Part shown: positions 2,951 through 10,577 of the stretch, piece by piece
How positions within the stretch are numbered: position 1 is the first letter of the stretch
Layout: every line of letters starts with the position of its first letter
Origin: Candidatus Acidiferrales bacterium
Lineage (GTDB): Bacteria > Bacteroidota > Ignavibacteria > Kryptoniales > JAKASW01
Direction: 5' to 3'
Assembly (NCBI GenBank): GCA_035515795.1
Contig: DATJAY010000026.1
Span: 1-64,000 of the forward strand
DNA: 64,000 bases
Position numbers and translations under genes: made by a program
Notes under the pieces: generated by a model
The model's database searches: none
Seen by the model: only the letters and a program-made list of their open reading frames with translations
What the model was told of the DNA's origin: nothing

Positions 2951-3375
2951 TTGACGTTTGGGGGCACTCGGAGAATATTCTTAACATTATTGATTGTCGA
3001 TGACAACGGGTTGAAGGTACAATTTCTTGCTGAGAAACTAAAGTTGTACAATGTTAGTGCGGTAGGAACCCCCATTTTTGCCACGGACACCTTGCGTACC
3101 CTGAAGTTCGACCTCATTTTTCTAGACTACGATTTGACTTCCACCCATCATTAAGCCTAATCGAAAATGGAACAGGTATCTACATTGCTAAACGATTGAG
3201 TGATACGATCAACGAGTCAACACTGGTTATTGTACATTTGATGAATATCAAAACTGCGGAGCACATGATAGGCCTGACGTAAAATGCTTGCATGATCCAT
3301 TTTGCAAGACTGCGGGAAGAACTTAGCATGAGAGACACAGACGAATTTCTTCGGAGCATTACCAAGAAGAGCTAA
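2951..3375 (+). pseudogene. Decayed receiver-domain gene (cREC-like)
   Basis: The first frame (TTG start at 2951) reads LTLLIVDDNGLKVQFLAEKL...FDLIFLDYDL, the beta1 acidic pair and the phospho-acceptor strand of a response-regulator receiver, and stops at 3154. The homology continues in the +1 frame from about 3150: ENGTGIYIAKRLSDTIN, LVIVHLMNIKTAEHMIGLT. It is then interrupted by a TAA at 3280-3282 and resumes in the same frame with IHFARLREELSMRDTDEF, ending at 3375. The pattern 'FLDYDL...ENGT.IA..L...VIVH.MN...A..M' is that of the stand-alone receivers called cyclic-phosphate-processing receivers (cREC). One frameshift plus one nonsense codon indicate a dead gene. It overlaps the convergent gene by 4 bases. 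Confidence 0.75.
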
Positions 3376-3716
3376 TGTGGATTCACTGTCGTTCTGAAGT
3401 AATCCATTATCATCATTCCGACTTCTTTGCGAGACGGCATCGGATCTTTCCGTGAAAGGTAAAGCTTCTGGACAATTCCCATAATTTGCGTATGAACTTC
3501 TGCACGCCGTGAGTTTGTGACGGGTATGCCCGCCGATTCAGCAGCTTCTTGCCTTACTCGTTCGGCATAATATTCTTTGCAGAGATTCAAAAATGCAAGT
3601 TTGGCATTTTCATTTACGAACAGCGCGAGAATATCTTTCAAATCCACGACGTCTCTCGACTTTTGACCAAGATACGTCCTCTTACTGGACAAACAAAGAG
3701 TGTCTAACAAATTCAT
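3372..3716 (-). CDS. Conserved-looking small helical protein after RuvC-like gene
   Basis: A 114-residue protein. The ATG at 3716 overlaps the stop of the RuvC-like gene as ATGA, which argues for translational coupling and against the longer frame that starts at 3749. I do not recognise a family. It is predicted largely helical (DLKDILALFVNENAKLAFLNLCKEYYAERVRQEAAESAG), with a basic middle (TNSRRAEVHTQIMGIVQKLYLSRKDPMPSRKEVGMMIMDYF) that could be a small DNA-binding bundle. Because of the coupling it may be a partner or specificity factor of the two RuvC-like proteins. It ends on the relics of the receiver pseudogene. Confidence 0.65.
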   Translation of the reverse strand: MNLLDTLCLSSKRTYLGQKSRDVVDLKDILALFVNENAKLAFLNLCKEYYAERVRQEAAESAGIPVTNSRRAEVHTQIMGIVQKLYLSRKDPMPSRKEVGMMIMDYFRTTVNPH

Positions 3717-4216
3717 TCGAGCCTTCTTAAAGCGGCTGCACCCAAGCATACCGCATCAAACATATTATAGAAGAACTCTTCCTTCCATCTCCGGTCCGAA
3801 TGCAAATAAGGCTTCAACTCCGGGAACTGTTCCACCATCTTTGTTGCTACCTCTTGTTTTCCTGCCATTCCATCGCCGCAGATTTCTTTTCTCACGGTGT
3901 TGGCTGACAATGTGAGAGTCTTGATCCGTTTCTTTCTGCCTATGGCGACAATTTCTTTAGTGAACTCATTTAGGACAGCGCTGTCCTTGTTGTTTGCGAA
4001 CAATGTTTTTTCGACAACGAGCAGACTCGGATGAAAATCATCCAAGAGTTCTTTAATGATTTTCCGTCCTTCCGTAAGGATTTCGCGGGAAGAATTTCTT
4101 TGCATGATCGTTGCCACGCCATAGTGTACCAGCGTCTTTCCGTTGAAGACGGCGAAACCCATGTTTTGCGTGCCAGGGTCTATCGCTAAGATCCTATCGG
4201 TTTTCTTTTTCGTCAT
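3713..4216 (-). CDS. RuvC-like Holliday-junction resolvase, catalytic residues intact
   Basis: A 167-residue protein of the RNase H-fold RuvC family (E. coli RuvC is 173). The first strand is RILAIDPGTQNMGFAVF with Asp13; the second acidic residue is Glu69 in LLVVEKTLFANN; the last is Asp154 in YNMFDAVCLGAAAL. In classical RuvC the last block reads H/D-x-x-D-A; here the first of these is Asn151, so three rather than four acids are seen. The basic segment RKKRIKTLTLSANTVRKEICG fits junction binding. The gene lies between a related but catalytically dead paralogue and a coupled small helical gene on the same strand. On a mobile island, resolution of recombination or replication intermediates is the likely role. 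The chromosomal ruvC is expected elsewhere. Confidence 0.8.
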   Translation of the reverse strand: MTKKKTDRILAIDPGTQNMGFAVFNGKTLVHYGVATIMQRNSSREILTEGRKIIKELLDDFHPSLLVVEKTLFANNKDSAVLNEFTKEIVAIGRKKRIKTLTLSANTVRKEICGDGMAGKQEVATKMVEQFPELKPYLHSDRRWKEEFFYNMFDAVCLGAAALRRLE

Positions 4217-4219
4217 TTC

Positions 4220-4741
4220 TTAATTGATGATTGATCGACCTTTTGATTTTCCTTCAAGCTTGGTAAGACATATCATCCCAAGAGCGACTGCCTCAAAGGC
4301 TCTGCCCAAATAGTAGCTTTTGCTTCTTCGTCCCTTTTCAAGTTCTGAATAGAGAATGGGATACCTTGCGGCCACTTCCTCCATTAGGTGGGTTTTGTTT
4401 AACCTTCCTGACGATAGAAGAAATGCTTCGATTTCCTTTATCGAGTACTCACATACTAAGAGCCCTTTTCTCGCCGCCCAGTTTTTCAATCTCTTTGTGA
4501 TTTCCATGAGGTTCTTGGAACTCCTTGCGGGATGCAGCTTCTTTATAGCGAGAACTTCTGATTTGTTGGTGTCCATGATGTCACTGATCATTGCGGTTAT
4601 ATCATGGTGCGCTTGATCGACTGTCTTTTGTCGCATTGATTTCACCCACCAGTCGTCCAGCTCCGACTCCCTAAATACCGCGATTCCTGTATGCCTCCAC
4701 CCGGGGTTAACCGCTATGATCCTCGTTGGTTTGCTTTGCAT
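4220..4741 (-). CDS. RuvC-like paralogue with all catalytic acids replaced
   Basis: A 173-residue protein when started at ATG 4741 (MQSKPTRIIAVNPG), the position that matches RuvC N-termini. The frame stays open to 4807, but that start would overlap the upstream gene by about 100 bases. It aligns along its length with the adjacent RuvC-like protein: RIIAVNPGWRHTGIAVF against RILAIDPGTQNMGFAVF, and GRAFEAVALGMICL against YNMFDAVCLGAAAL. The catalytic positions become Asn12 (for Asp), Lys67 in VLAIKKLHP (for Glu) and Glu150 (for Asp). Metal-dependent cleavage is therefore unlikely. The fold and basic surface (KRLKNWAARKG) are kept, so it may bind branched DNA or pair with the active copy. The spacing of 3 bases implies one operon. 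Confidence 0.75.
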   Translation of the reverse strand: MQSKPTRIIAVNPGWRHTGIAVFRESELDDWWVKSMRQKTVDQAHHDITAMISDIMDTNKSEVLAIKKLHPARSSKNLMEITKRLKNWAARKGLLVCEYSIKEIEAFLLSSGRLNKTHLMEEVAARYPILYSELEKGRRSKSYYLGRAFEAVALGMICLTKLEGKSKGRSIIN

Positions 4742-5381
4742 AGAATTTGACGAGATACCTGAACAATGCCACTCGACTTTTCCTGATTCTCGAATCAGGA
4801 GTAGCATTTGTCTCGGATAAGACGTGTCTCAGGAATTCTTCCGGATATTTTTGGGCATAAAAGAGATAACGCCCGAAGTGGCGTTCGTCGCCCAGTGCCT
4901 CCATCAGGTCGTTAGCCAACAGCTCCTCTCTTGCTCTTAAGTCATCCTGGTCAGGGGTATTCTTGGTGGAGTACGATTTCTTTACATAAACAATATTATT
5001 GGTATTATTTCTTGTTCCCTTATTGTTGTTTGTGTTCACTTTTGATACACCATGATTCCTTTCTTTCGACAGGTGTGTATCGTTATTCAACACGGTTACC
5101 GGCAAAAGGTGGTACACTGTGGATTTACCAGGAGTTTTCCACACACTTATTAACTTACTTTCCACAAGACTTTTTATAGCTTTGTTTACTGACCCTCGTG
5201 AGCAGCCTATCCGTTCTGCAATGTATTTTTGCGAAGGGTAACAGCTTTGGTTTTTGTCAGCCATACTGGCTAAGAAGTGATAGACACCCACGGATAAAAG
5301 ACCCATTTCTCTTGCATAAATTTGGATAATTGCCTTATCCAGCCAGTACCATTCGCCGTGTTTCATGGTTCGCTGTTCCAT
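4707..5381 (-). CDS. Winged-helix replication-type protein (HTH_36-like)
   Basis: A 224-residue protein. Residues about 10-95 (DKAIIQIYAREMGLLSVGVYHFLASMADKNQSCYPSQKYIAERIGCSRGSVNKAIKSLVESKLISVWKTPGKSTVYHLLP) form the winged helix found in phage/plasmid replication initiators and DnaD-like helicase loaders ('CYPSQ..IA..IGCSR..V.KAI..L...LI'). An Asn/Thr-rich linker follows, then a helical C-terminal domain (ELLANDLMEALGDERHFGRYLFYAQKYPEEFLRHVLSE) reminiscent of DnaD-type tails. An alternative start is Met6 (5366). It heads the minus-strand operon with the two RuvC-like genes, so a replication or recombination module of a mobile element is likely. Initiator versus transcription factor cannot be settled here. 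Confidence 0.7.
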   Translation of the reverse strand: MEQRTMKHGEWYWLDKAIIQIYAREMGLLSVGVYHFLASMADKNQSCYPSQKYIAERIGCSRGSVNKAIKSLVESKLISVWKTPGKSTVYHLLPVTVLNNDTHLSKERNHGVSKVNTNNNKGTRNNTNNIVYVKKSYSTKNTPDQDDLRAREELLANDLMEALGDERHFGRYLFYAQKYPEEFLRHVLSETNATPDSRIRKSRVALFRYLVKFYAKQTNEDHSG

Positions 5382-5385
5382 GATG

Positions 5386-5733
5386 TTAATTTCTTGAAAG
5401 ATGTTTCTCAGACGATCCTTTTAAACCAAAGAACTTCTCCTCTTGTTCTTTTATTTCCTCCTTCAGAGAACAAAAAAGATCAGGGAAGAGAGCGTCGAAC
5501 ATAAACACACGATACAGAACGGCAAGACGGAACAAATTTATGGCGCTTGGAAGGCAATGTCCTTTCTCCCATCTGGATATTCCGCTCTGGTCTTTGAACT
5601 TAAGTAATTTTGCGACATCCTTTTGCTTAAACCCCCTCACTCGCCGGTATTTCCTGAGAAGGTTTGGTATCCTACGTCTCGACCACTGCGTTGATTTAAC
5701 GTGAGTGATCCCCTTCCGAATTTTTTGGTGCAT
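5386..5733 (-). CDS. XRE-family regulator
   Basis: A 115-residue protein with a classical Cro/CI helix-turn-helix at about 28-80: LLRKYRRVRGFKQKDVAKLLKFKDQSGISRWEKGHCLPSAINLFRLAVLYRV. The recognition helix SGISRWEKG is textbook. The C-terminus is a charged helix (LKEEIKEQEEKF). It lies 4 bases upstream of the replication-type gene on the same strand and is probably the first gene of that operon. The upstream divergent region holds a 16-bp inverted repeat (5780-5795) that could be its operator. It presumably sets the on/off state of the island's minus-strand genes. Confidence 0.75.
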   Translation of the reverse strand: MHQKIRKGITHVKSTQWSRRRIPNLLRKYRRVRGFKQKDVAKLLKFKDQSGISRWEKGHCLPSAINLFRLAVLYRVFMFDALFPDLFCSLKEEIKEQEEKFFGLKGSSEKHLSRN

Positions 5734-5779
5734 ACTTTTAGAATATCAATCAGAGCCATTCACAATAAGGAGGGTAAAA

Positions 5780-5795
5780 TTGCCGGATTCGGCAA
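5780..5795. promoter_or_regulatory. Inverted repeat in divergent promoter region
   Basis: TTGCCG-GATT-CGGCAA, perfect 6-bp arms, sits 47 bases upstream of the XRE gene and about 155 bases before the membrane-protein gene. It is flanked by A-runs, so it could also act as a weak hairpin terminator for minus-strand transcripts. Operator use by the XRE protein is the simpler reading, but it is inference. The rest of 5734-5950 is AT-rich, with no other clear signal. Confidence 0.4.
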
Positions 5796-5950
5796 AAAAC
5801 CTGTTCAAAGCCTCCTAAACGCTACCAAGTAGATGCGTGTCGAGGTGTGCCATTTTAGTATTTGATTCGATTAAGTAAATTCATGAACGAGAGCTCCAAT
5901 ATTTAATCACTCAGTCATAATTAACACTCTTAAATTTTACGGAGGTTATA

Positions 5951-6628
5951 GTGGCACATTCGATACTTAGATTTATTTTCTGGGCTGGAATTCTGGTTCT
6001 TGTTTACGGCCTTTTCGTTGCTAGTCTTTTAGGATCCAATGCGGGCTCGTCGTACCTTACCTTTGGGTTTATCATCATTATTATCGCCATCGTGGTAGCC
6101 GCACTGCCTGATGTATTGAGAACTGACCAGGTCATTGACGTTTGGGCAACGCTCATTGAAAAAGCCAACGGCAAAGCAGACGAGGTGCTTGCCACCACTT
6201 GGGCATTCCTTAAGGAAAGCAAGGCGCCCGCTCTCAATATCGTGAAAAAGAAAATATCAACCAGTGTTTTAACGGGTTTAGTGGGAAACGAGAGGGAGTT
6301 CCTGGTCCTGACCGACAAACAGAGACTGAGTTTGCGGCAGTACCAGATTTTCATTAATTCAAAGGACTATGGAGAGAATTTGGACGTATCATGGTACCTC
6401 ACGCGCCGTCCCACAGTTGGACAAGCCATTGCATCGTTGATAATGAGATCCGCTTCTACAACTAAGGACATAAGCGATCTTAACGTCTTCGACCAACAGG
6501 ATTTGAGGGCATGCGTTACCAACGCCCACAATTGCTTGAGGAAAGCGGTCGAGAAAATAATGTTCGACACCGGCCAGGATCCTTCCAAGGTGGACTGGAA
6601 GTCGAAAGGTTTCTTGGGTATTTCCTAA
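5951..6628 (+). CDS. Two-helix membrane protein upstream of the VirD4/HerA-like ATPase
   Basis: A 225-residue protein. GTG start at 5951 with a good GGAGG seven bases upstream (5941-5945 region). Two membrane helices span about 8-28 (FIFWAGILVLVYGLFVASLLG) and 35-53 (YLTFGFIIIIIAIVVAALP), followed by a soluble domain of about 170 residues with mixed helices (TTWAFLKESKAPALNIVKKKIST; REFLVLTDKQRLSLRQYQIFINSKDYGE). I recognise no family. It is 43 bases upstream of the ATPase gene and surely shares its transcript. A membrane anchor or channel partner for that ATPase is a reasonable inference. Confidence 0.7.
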   Translation: MAHSILRFIFWAGILVLVYGLFVASLLGSNAGSSYLTFGFIIIIIAIVVAALPDVLRTDQVIDVWATLIEKANGKADEVLATTWAFLKESKAPALNIVKKKISTSVLTGLVGNEREFLVLTDKQRLSLRQYQIFINSKDYGENLDVSWYLTRRPTVGQAIASLIMRSASTTKDISDLNVFDQQDLRACVTNAHNCLRKAVEKIMFDTGQDPSKVDWKSKGFLGIS

Positions 6629-6671
6629 CTGGACCATTTGACGAAATGGAAACGGATCACGGAGAAATAGC

Positions 6672-8819
6672 TTGGGTTTTGTAGAAAGATTTCTTGACCT
6701 GTTGCTCGGCGAAGGAAGGCATAGCGAGCAAAGTACGACACCGGAAGAGGTTTCCTCTGAACCAAACATCCACTATGAAGAAACTGCGGGCGCTCTCGAT
6801 TTGGGCTGGAGGTATTCGGAGGATAAGAACGAATTCCAGATGGCGAAGATCGCCCAACGGGATCGTGGAACACACATGTACGTCATCGGCTCGACAGGTT
6901 CAGGCAAGACGAAGTTTCTCGAATTCCTCGTGAGCCAAGACATCAAGGAAAGACACGGTTTCGGAGTCATCGACCCCCACGGTGATCTTATCGAGGACAT
7001 CAAGGGATTCTTGGCAAACTCATATGAAGAAAACGAGCTTGCTGAAAGAGTCGTTCTCATTGATCCCACCGACAAGCAGTCCACCGTCACATTCAATCCA
7101 TTGGAGAAAATGGGCGATGTATCAATCGCCGATCAGGTGAACGAACTCATAAGTAGTTTCAGAAAAATATGGTCGGACTCATGGGGCGCCAGGATGGAAG
7201 ATTTGATGCGGAACTCCATGATAGCCCTCGGGGAATCAGGGTACACCCTGATTGATCTGCCTATCTTCCTCTCAAGACGGGCATTCAGAGAGATCGTAAT
7301 AAAGAAAGTAACTCATCCAATTACCTTGGAATACTTCACTCGTTTCGAAGCCATGACCGACCGGGCACAGGTAACATGGGTTGAGCCGGTGATGAACAAG
7401 ATAAATGCACTCCTCTCGGATGAACGAATACGGCAGATGTTTTCCGCCTCACAAAGCTCGTTCAATATAAAGGATGTTATTAATTCCAAGAAGATACTTC
7501 TCATTAAGCTCGATAAGGGAAAGCTGAAGGACTCCTCTGACCTTTTGGGTTCTCTGCTCCTGAGCAAAATCCAGATGGCAGCATTTTCGAGAGGGGATGT
7601 GCCACAGAGGAAAAGAACACCTTTCTACTTGTACATAGATGAATTCCAGAATTTCGCTTCGGAATCATTTTCAGTCATCCTTTCGGAGGCGAGGAAATAT
7701 GGTCTGTCGCTTATCATGGCACACCAGACGATGGCACAGATTCCTGATGAATTGAGAAGTCTCATTTTAGGAAACACCGGCTTACAGGTTTTCTTCAGGC
7801 TCAACCGCCAGGACGCCTCACTTCTGGCCAAGGAAGCTTTCTCCTATTCCGGCTACGAGGTTAAGGGCGTAAGAAATCTTAGTCCTATCTACTGGACACT
7901 CGGTGAGGAATGGGAGAAGAAAACCGAGGAGTTTCAAAGTCTCCAACCACGGTTCTGCTATGTGAAGCACAAGATTCAAGGCGGCTTGATCCTGATACAG
8001 ACAGCCGAGATAGAGGACTCTTGGGGCGTAGCTGACATGCCCGAGGAGGAGTTCTACGAGTTCATGGAACGACTCCCATTCGGAAAGAAATACCTGAAGC
8101 TGAGAGATGAGCTGTCCGCCTCTGTGAAACAAAGAACGGAACAAATATATGGCGAACTTCGGACTAAAGAGGAGGAACGGAAAAAGTATTTCGAAGCCAA
8201 ACCGGCGCCTGTGGGAACACCTGTTTCGGAGCCAGCATCAATTCGCGAAACACCTGTTCTATTGGAAAAGGAAGCCGTGTTAAATACCATGGAGGCTCCG
8301 AAAGAGAAGGCGGAGACGCAGCACAGATATTTGCAGAACCTCGTGAAAAACATAGCCGAGGGTGCCGGATACCGGGCCACGATTGAAGCCACGACACCGG
8401 ATGGCAATGGACGGGTTGACGTACTAATCGAAAAGGATAACGAGAAAATAGCGTGTGAAATCACCGTGACCACGGATGAAGTTCATGAACTCGAAAACAT
8501 AAAGAAATGTCTGTCATCAGGGTACAGCGAAGTCATGGTCTGCTCTGAGGATAAAAGGAAATTAGAGAAGATAAAAAAACTGGCATCAGATCAGGTTGAT
8601 GCAAAAGATCAGCCGAACATTCTTTTCTTCACCCCAGAGGATCTCGTGTCGTACTTCACTGGAAAAGGTACGAAAGATGTGGTCGAGGAAAAGAAAATCA
8701 AGGGTTACAGAGTCAAGGTTACGCATCCGGGTTACGATGATATGGAGAAAGCGAAGAAACGGCAGTCCGTAGCGGATGTGATACTCAAATCGTTTCAACG
8801 TCTTAAGGGCAAGAAATGA
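6672..8819 (+). CDS. VirD4/TraD/HerA-like ATPase with C-terminal nuclease-like domain
   Basis: A 715-residue protein starting with TTG at 6672, with GGAG seven bases upstream. The N-terminal third has Walker A GSTGSGKT (73-80) followed by FLVSQDIKERHGFGVIDPHGDLIEDI, the signature of type IV coupling/DUF87-like DNA translocases. Walker B is YLYIDEFQNFASESF (Asp323-Glu324), and GLSLIMAHQTMAQIP is the sensor segment of the same family. After a charged coiled linker (about 480-550) comes GNGRVDVLIEKDNEKIACEITVTT: Asp583 and Glu596 in a PD-(D/E)xK-like arrangement, with Thr598 where Lys would be expected. It may therefore be a degenerate or variant nuclease domain. No relaxase or mating-pore genes are nearby. 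DNA transfer or anti-invader defence are both possible. Confidence 0.75.
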   Translation: MGFVERFLDLLLGEGRHSEQSTTPEEVSSEPNIHYEETAGALDLGWRYSEDKNEFQMAKIAQRDRGTHMYVIGSTGSGKTKFLEFLVSQDIKERHGFGVIDPHGDLIEDIKGFLANSYEENELAERVVLIDPTDKQSTVTFNPLEKMGDVSIADQVNELISSFRKIWSDSWGARMEDLMRNSMIALGESGYTLIDLPIFLSRRAFREIVIKKVTHPITLEYFTRFEAMTDRAQVTWVEPVMNKINALLSDERIRQMFSASQSSFNIKDVINSKKILLIKLDKGKLKDSSDLLGSLLLSKIQMAAFSRGDVPQRKRTPFYLYIDEFQNFASESFSVILSEARKYGLSLIMAHQTMAQIPDELRSLILGNTGLQVFFRLNRQDASLLAKEAFSYSGYEVKGVRNLSPIYWTLGEEWEKKTEEFQSLQPRFCYVKHKIQGGLILIQTAEIEDSWGVADMPEEEFYEFMERLPFGKKYLKLRDELSASVKQRTEQIYGELRTKEEERKKYFEAKPAPVGTPVSEPASIRETPVLLEKEAVLNTMEAPKEKAETQHRYLQNLVKNIAEGAGYRATIEATTPDGNGRVDVLIEKDNEKIACEITVTTDEVHELENIKKCLSSGYSEVMVCSEDKRKLEKIKKLASDQVDAKDQPNILFFTPEDLVSYFTGKGTKDVVEEKKIKGYRVKVTHPGYDDMEKAKKRQSVADVILKSFQRLKGKK

Positions 8820-10455: not shown

Positions 10456-10504
10456 GTTCTTGCTGCGCGCCTTGTTTGAGCGAGTCGTGGTGGGTAAATT
10501 CCTG

Positions 10505-10577
10505 TGGATCACCGGGGACTCGAACCCCGAACCCACTGATTAAGAGTCAGTTGCTCTACCAATTGAGCTAGTGATCC
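10505..10577 (-). tRNA. tRNA-Lys (anticodon CTT)
   Basis: A 73-base cloverleaf on the minus strand. Acceptor stem GGATCAC (10577-10571) pairs with GTGATCC (10512-10506). The D arm is GCTC-AATTGGTA-GAGC. The anticodon arm is ACTGA-CTCTTAA-TCAGT, giving anticodon CTT. The T arm is CGGGG-TTCGAGT-CCCCG. The discriminator is A and CCA is not encoded. The 3' end points towards the island, but I found no direct repeat of it at the left side of the island. Confidence 0.95.

What the first reader, a model, noticed from the sequence alone, without database searches (positions are those of the whole stretch)
3372..4741. Active and catalytically dead RuvC-like proteins in tandem with a coupled third gene
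The protein at 3713-4216 keeps Asp13, Glu69 and Asp154. Its aligned neighbour at 4220-4741 has Asn, Lys and Glu at those places. The 114-residue helical protein is ATGA-coupled. A resolvase pair in which one subunit only binds (a pseudo-resolvase) is not something I know in this setting. It could give asymmetric cleavage, control the active subunit, or bind branched DNA as a sensor.
Basis: partly seen in the sequence, partly recalled or inferred. Interest (0 to 1): 0.7.

Follow-up and report, generated by a model that had tools for sequence, protein, structure and literature searches.

The report
Conserved dead–active RuvC gene pair
In mobile DNA elements of Bacteroidota-type bacteria, two neighbouring genes make two versions of a DNA-junction-cutting enzyme, one of which has kept a disabled cutting site across many species, so it was probably repurposed to hold or sense DNA rather than cut it.

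Summary
In detail: 4220-4741(-) is a RuvC-fold protein with Asn/Lys/Glu where its neighbour 3713-4216(-) has Asp/Glu/Asp. It is not private decay. I found 11 such disabled proteins, including a second copy in this genome, others across the phylum and one on a viral/plasmid-like contig. They form one clade (support 100/99). Lys replaces the Glu and Glu replaces the last Asp in 11/11; the first Asp is Asn, Val, Ser or Ile. dN/dS is about 0.14 (near saturation). The acid-bearing partner was found seven times, always with the disabled one; four disabled genes stand without it. All 11 follow an XRE regulator gene. A sister XRE–RuvC-like operon reaching Bradyrhizobium plasmids has lost acids in 3 of 4. 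So cleavage seems dispensable and the XRE link constant. The module lies near a VirD4/TraG-like ATPase and often a recombinase; a candidate operator precedes most XRE genes. Two corrections: the 'active' protein keeps three of four RuvC carboxylates (N151 replaces one), and the third gene is chromosomal (beside sbcCD, without RuvC genes, in a sister species). Heterodimerisation, DNA binding and cleavage are untested. I found no published description in the literature held here.

The parts
5779..5796 (-). candidate XRE operator, 18-bp imperfect palindrome (TTTGCC-N6-GGCAAT read towards the XRE gene), 45 bp before the XRE start
   Evidence: Similar TTTGYC-N6-GRCAAA-like site 37-48 bp upstream of XRE in about 9 of 11 dead-RuvC loci; weak individually in some. 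Window search.
5386..5733 (-). XRE-type helix-turn-helix regulator, first gene of the operon
   Evidence: Pfam HTH_3 E 1.3e-7; orthologues upstream of all 11 dead RuvC genes and of 4/4 sister RuvC-like genes
4707..5381 (-). winged-helix (HTH_36) phage-type replication-initiator/helicase-loader-like protein with a conserved small C-terminal domain
   Evidence: Pfam HTH_36 E 1.9e-14; PHROG DnaD-like/replication initiation E about 1e-15; C-terminal domain alone in three lone-dead loci
4220..4741 (-). catalytically disabled RuvC-fold protein (N12, K67, E150 at the positions of the catalytic Asp, Glu, Asp)
3713..4216 (-). RuvC-like protein with D13, E69, D154 kept (N151 replaces one carboxylate); probable active resolvase
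6672..8819 (+). VirD4/TraG-type coupling ATPase, divergent from the operon; recurring neighbour of the module
   Evidence: Pfam TrwB_AAD_bind E 1.6e-12; same cluster in most of the loci compared
3372..3716 (-). 114-aa ORF overlapping the RuvC stop by ATGA; judged NOT part of the module (chromosomal neighbour)
   Evidence: Homologue beside sbcCD and a receiver gene in G009, which has no RuvC pair; absent from the other paired loci

Best explanation
The second protein is an old, selected RuvC-fold pseudonuclease that belongs to an XRE-controlled core module of integrative mobile elements. Shown: its catalytic acids are lost in all relatives found, it is under purifying selection, it always follows an XRE gene, and it does not need the active paralog. 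Inferred: it binds duplex or branched DNA (or the XRE/replication proteins) without cutting, and serves as a structural or sensing partner of the XRE switch that sets when the element replicates or moves. The acid-bearing paralog is an optional resolvase, always found together with the dead protein, which probably targets or restrains it at the element's own branched DNA.
For: 11 dead homologues in one clade (100/99), Lys at the catalytic Glu and Glu at the last Asp in 11/11. dN/dS 0.14 (window vs C3) and 0.15 (G145 vs G081), dS near saturation. XRE directly upstream in 11/11, and the dead start overlaps the upstream gene by 11-35 bp in all 10 loci that have that gene. Dead without active in four loci. 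A sister XRE-RuvC-like operon in G388, G219, G473 and Bradyrhizobium plasmids lost acids in 3 of 4 and shares with the dead clade the Trp at position 31 (10/11 dead; W/F/W/W in the sister group), which is Tyr/Cys/His in the active proteins. Palindromic site at a near-fixed distance before XRE in most loci. ATPase and recombinase neighbours.
Against: No binding, regulation or mobility was measured. The position of the dead clade next to the sister XRE-RuvC group rather than the active clade is not resolved (support 81/16; the alternative is not rejected, p-AU 0.455). The active protein is always paired with the dead one, which also fits a heteromeric resolvase. The operator motif was derived from the same loci it was scored on.
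Confidence: 0.55

Rival explanations
1. The two proteins form an obligate heterodimeric resolvase: the dead subunit supplies half of the junction-binding surface, so that the complex nicks only one strand or stays off until needed. A variant: the dead subunit is a brake on a toxic fork-nicking nuclease.
For: Active never found without dead, 7/7, among several hundred genomes; tight gene spacing of -14 to +46 bp in 6 of 7; RuvC works as a dimer through helices A/B and phage RuvC overexpression nicks forks (PMC3834835, PMC3864405).
Against: Four loci have the dead gene alone, with only canonical RuvC found elsewhere in the genomes searched (G081, G145, G292); a methyltransferase-like gene separates the two in G538. 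No co-folding could be run.
Confidence: 0.25
2. The dead and active genes are simply neighbours in a replication/recombination cassette and work independently; the pairing reflects shared transfer of the cassette, not interaction.
For: The winged-helix domain and the active gene come and go together (7/7 vs 0/4); phage-type replication genes often lie next to RuvC-like genes (own knowledge).
Against: Pairing persists through deep divergence of both proteins, with overlap or near-overlap of genes.
Confidence: 0.13
3. The second protein is a private or recent decay product of a resolvase gene in this genome.
For: Weak Pfam score alone.
Against: 11 homologues with the same Lys and Glu substitutions, all open frames, purifying selection.
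Confidence: 0.02
4. The dead protein keeps a changed catalytic chemistry using the conserved Lys67 and Glu150.
For: Lys67 and Glu150 are invariant in 11/11.
Against: The first-acid position varies freely (N/V/S/I), so the usual two-metal site cannot be formed; no known RNase H-fold nuclease uses this set (own knowledge).
Confidence: 0.05

Closest known systems
RuvC Holliday-junction resolvase (PF02075; E. coli, T. thermophilus, phage bIL67 RuvC)
   Same: Fold; size; helix order; conserved Lys of the RuvC K118 position in both proteins; Asp/Glu/Asp kept in the active paralog
   Different: Dead paralog lacks the acids; active paralog has Asn at one carboxylate; the genes sit in a mobile-element operon after XRE and winged-helix genes
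TEFM and the YqgF domain of Tex/Spt6
   Same: RuvC/YqgF fold reused; both appear among the structure hits of the dead model. That TEFM is non-cutting is own knowledge
   Different: Other proteins, eukaryotic or transcription-linked; not a tandem with an active paralog
TldR, nuclease-dead TnpB-derived regulators of phages
   Same: RuvC nuclease domain of mobile origin reused in regulation (PMC13418256 abstract; nuclease loss is own knowledge)
   Different: RNA-guided and much larger; no sequence link tested here
Mus81-Eme1 / XPF-ERCC1
   Same: Active plus dead paralogous nuclease subunits acting on branched DNA (own knowledge)
   Different: Different nuclease fold; heterodimer known there, untested here
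XRE + RuvC-like two-gene operon of Bradyrhizobium plasmids (annotated HTH regulator + hypothetical protein)
   Same: Homologous RuvC-like protein coupled directly to XRE, acids also lost (Y/Q/D)
   Different: No winged-helix gene, no active paralog; not described in the literature found

Membership tests
RuvC resolvase (active paralog, 3713-4216) | RuvC/RNase H-like fold | tested here: met
   Model pLDDT 86; best hits all RuvC; Pfam RuvC E 2e-12
RuvC resolvase (active paralog, 3713-4216) | Four catalytic carboxylates | tested here: not met
   Three kept (D13, E69, D154) in 7/7; the fourth is Asn in 7/7. T. thermophilus has His there and is active (PMC3834835), so activity remains plausible; the NCBIfam RuvC equivalog cut-off is also not reached
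RuvC resolvase (active paralog, 3713-4216) | Cleaves Holliday junctions as a dimer | not testable with these tools
   Needs protein
RuvC resolvase (dead protein, 4220-4741) | RuvC fold and common ancestry | tested here: met
RuvC resolvase (dead protein, 4220-4741) | Catalytic Asp, Glu, Asp | tested here: not met
   N/V/S/I, K (11/11), E (11/11)
RuvC resolvase (dead protein, 4220-4741) | Conserved junction-contact lysines (E. coli K107 and K118) | tested here: inconclusive
   K118 position kept 11/11 as K116; K107 position is Glu or Lys in about equal numbers, read from the HMM and family alignments
Active/dead heterodimeric nuclease (Mus81-Eme1-like arrangement) | Active subunit always accompanied by dead paralog | tested here: met
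   7/7
Active/dead heterodimeric nuclease (Mus81-Eme1-like arrangement) | Physical heterodimer | not tested
XRE-coupled RuvC-like operon | XRE gene directly upstream of a RuvC-fold gene (in paired loci with the winged-helix gene between) | tested here: met
   15/15 loci
Integrative/conjugative element | Coupling ATPase | tested here: met
   window 6672-8819 and relatives
Integrative/conjugative element | Recombinase next to the module | tested here: inconclusive
   Tyrosine or serine recombinase at G081, G145, G292, L045, L115 (and sister loci G219, G388); none seen near the window or C3 copies

The most novel reading that the evidence does not exclude
A bacterial RuvC-family heteromeric resolvase with a dedicated, conserved non-cutting subunit, controlled by an XRE switch of a mobile element, that senses or half-cuts branched DNA to decide replication or transfer.
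Probability: 0.25. Interest if true: 0.78.

Novelty: new variant of a known kind. Interest (0 to 1): 0.58.

Why it matters
RuvC is a textbook homodimeric enzyme. A clade in which the cutting site has been lost and replaced by a fixed Lys and Glu, kept under selection beside an active paralog and always behind a regulator, would show that RuvC folds are also used as non-cutting DNA-binding or sensing parts in mobile elements. It gives a small, testable two-protein system for asking whether resolvase symmetry can be controlled by a dead subunit.

Tried and rejected
Private decay: rejected. Third gene as a component: rejected. Phage or plasmid collections as the main home of the dead gene: tblastn of two dead proteins in plasmids gave nothing; viral contigs gave one complete module. 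tRNA attachment site: no tRNA in the eight flanking loci scanned; one tRNA-Lys at window 10504-10577, not followed. Defence-system label: only a mad8-like hit of the ATPase, no hit of the RuvC proteins beyond weak Cas12c RuvC matches. A search with the broad dead alignment in viral contigs was not possible (too divergent). Literature searches found no description of such a pair.

Full report
WHAT IS THERE. On the minus strand the window holds an operon: XRE regulator (5386-5733), winged-helix HTH_36 protein (4707-5381), disabled RuvC-fold protein (4220-4741), acid-bearing RuvC-like protein (3713-4216), with a divergent VirD4/TraG-like ATPase at 6672-8819. The two RuvC proteins align over their length at 25% identity. 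AlphaFold models of both are confident (dead pLDDT 88, acid-bearing 86) and match RuvC structures best. Where the acid-bearing protein has the catalytic Asp, Glu and Asp, the disabled one has Asn, Lys and Glu. The acid-bearing protein and its six relatives have Asn where canonical RuvC in these genomes has Asp, so they keep three of four carboxylates; T. thermophilus RuvC carries His at that site and is active (PMC3834835). Cleavage by it is therefore likely but not shown.

NOT DECAY. The same genome has a second copy of XRE + winged-helix + dead + active on another contig. Relatives occur in the same genus (Candidatus Kryptoniota isolate Ww171, G010), in Ignavibacteria (G145), in G081, G497, G538, G556 and G292, in a Bacteroidetes MAG (L045) and on a 58.7-kb IMG/VR contig (L115). 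Eleven dead proteins form one clade (100/99) and seven active ones another (99/97) in a 42-row tree with canonical and phage RuvC. In the dead clade the catalytic Glu is Lys in 11/11 and the last Asp is Glu in 11/11, while the first Asp is N, V, S or I. dN/dS is 0.14 and 0.15 in two pairs, with dS near saturation.

WHAT GOES WITH WHAT. Active without dead: none found in several hundred genomes (197, 395 and 391 searched, overlapping) or in viral contigs. Dead without active: four loci (G145, G081, G292, L045). XRE upstream: 11/11. The dead start overlaps the end of the upstream gene by 11-35 bp in all 10 loci that have it; dead and active are -14 to +46 bp apart in six of seven, and in G538 a methyltransferase-like gene lies between them. 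All seven paired loci have a full winged-helix protein (in L115 with a diverged N-terminal part); three lone loci have only its 79-aa C-terminal domain and one has neither (7/7 against 0/4, not phylogenetically independent). The winged-helix protein resembles phage replication initiators and DnaD-like helicase loaders.

WIDER FAMILY. A sister group of RuvC-like genes follows homologous XRE genes in G388, G219, G473 and Bradyrhizobium plasmids, where they are annotated as hypothetical. Acids there are D/E/D, Y/L/D, Y/E/S and Y/Q/D. So XRE-coupled RuvC-like proteins have lost acids in 14 of 15 cases. The dead clade and this group share an aromatic (mostly Trp) at position 31, where the active proteins have Tyr, Cys or His. 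The tree puts dead with this group, but weakly (81/16), and dead+active is not rejected (p-AU 0.455).

ELEMENT AND REGULATION. The ATPase family and a small conserved membrane-type protein recur beside the module, and tyrosine or serine recombinases lie near five dead loci and two sister loci. None was seen near the window or C3 copies, so those may be immobile remnants. An imperfect 18-bp palindrome (TTTGYC-N6-GRCAAA) lies 37-48 bp before the XRE start in about nine of the 11 dead loci, including window 5779-5796; several single sites are not significant by themselves, the near-constant distance is the stronger point, and the motif was derived from the same loci.

THIRD GENE. The 114-aa ORF overlaps the RuvC stop (ATGA), but no other paired locus has it. 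In G009, which has no RuvC pair, its homologue (70% identity, 86 aa) lies between sbcCD and a receiver gene; the window keeps a broken copy of that receiver at 2951-3369. The first 23-24 residues of the window ORF have no counterpart there. The coupling is most simply a by-product of the module lying against a chromosomal gene.

MECHANISM. Shown by sequence: fold, loss of acids, selection, gene order, occurrence of dead without active, and no occurrence of active without dead. Inferred: the dead protein binds DNA without cutting (net charge +6 to +14 in the seven computed; the RuvC K118-position Lys kept 11/11, the K107 position not) and is a part of the XRE-controlled switch of the element; where present, the active paralog is its resolvase partner. 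Heterodimerisation through helix B (the main dimer contact in phage RuvC, PMC3864405) is possible and untested. Phage RuvC is harmful when overexpressed (same paper), so a restraining role is also plausible.

KNOWN OR NEW. The fold and the idea of reused dead RuvC folds are known (TEFM, YqgF domains, TldR). No family model covers the dead protein above cut-off and no paper found describes an XRE-coupled dead RuvC with an active paralog (the library holds open-access papers only). I rate it a new variant of a known kind.

Noticed in passing
L006:2610-8505 (G000 C3) and window 3713-8819: Two diverged copies of the same module (dead proteins 62% identical) sit in one genome.
   Followed up: yes
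window 6672-8819, C-terminal part: The coupling ATPase has a C-terminal region with a restriction-endonuclease-like look (GRVDVLIEKDNEKIACEIT), also in the C3 copy; not tested with a profile.
   Followed up: no
L091:905-1531 (G538): A methyltransferase-like gene with a DPPY motif is inserted between the dead and active RuvC genes.
   Followed up: no
L082 and L083, about 100-200 bp before XRE: Repeated TTTCCACA/TATCCACAA words resembling DnaA boxes, possibly a replication origin.
   Followed up: no
L080:4698-6430 (G219): An element with the sister XRE-RuvC-like operon carries two genes that look like an E2-like / JAB-domain pair typical of defence operons (by eye only).
   Followed up: no
window 2951-3369: Broken response-regulator receiver gene, syntenic with an intact one beside sbcCD in G009.
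   Followed up: yes
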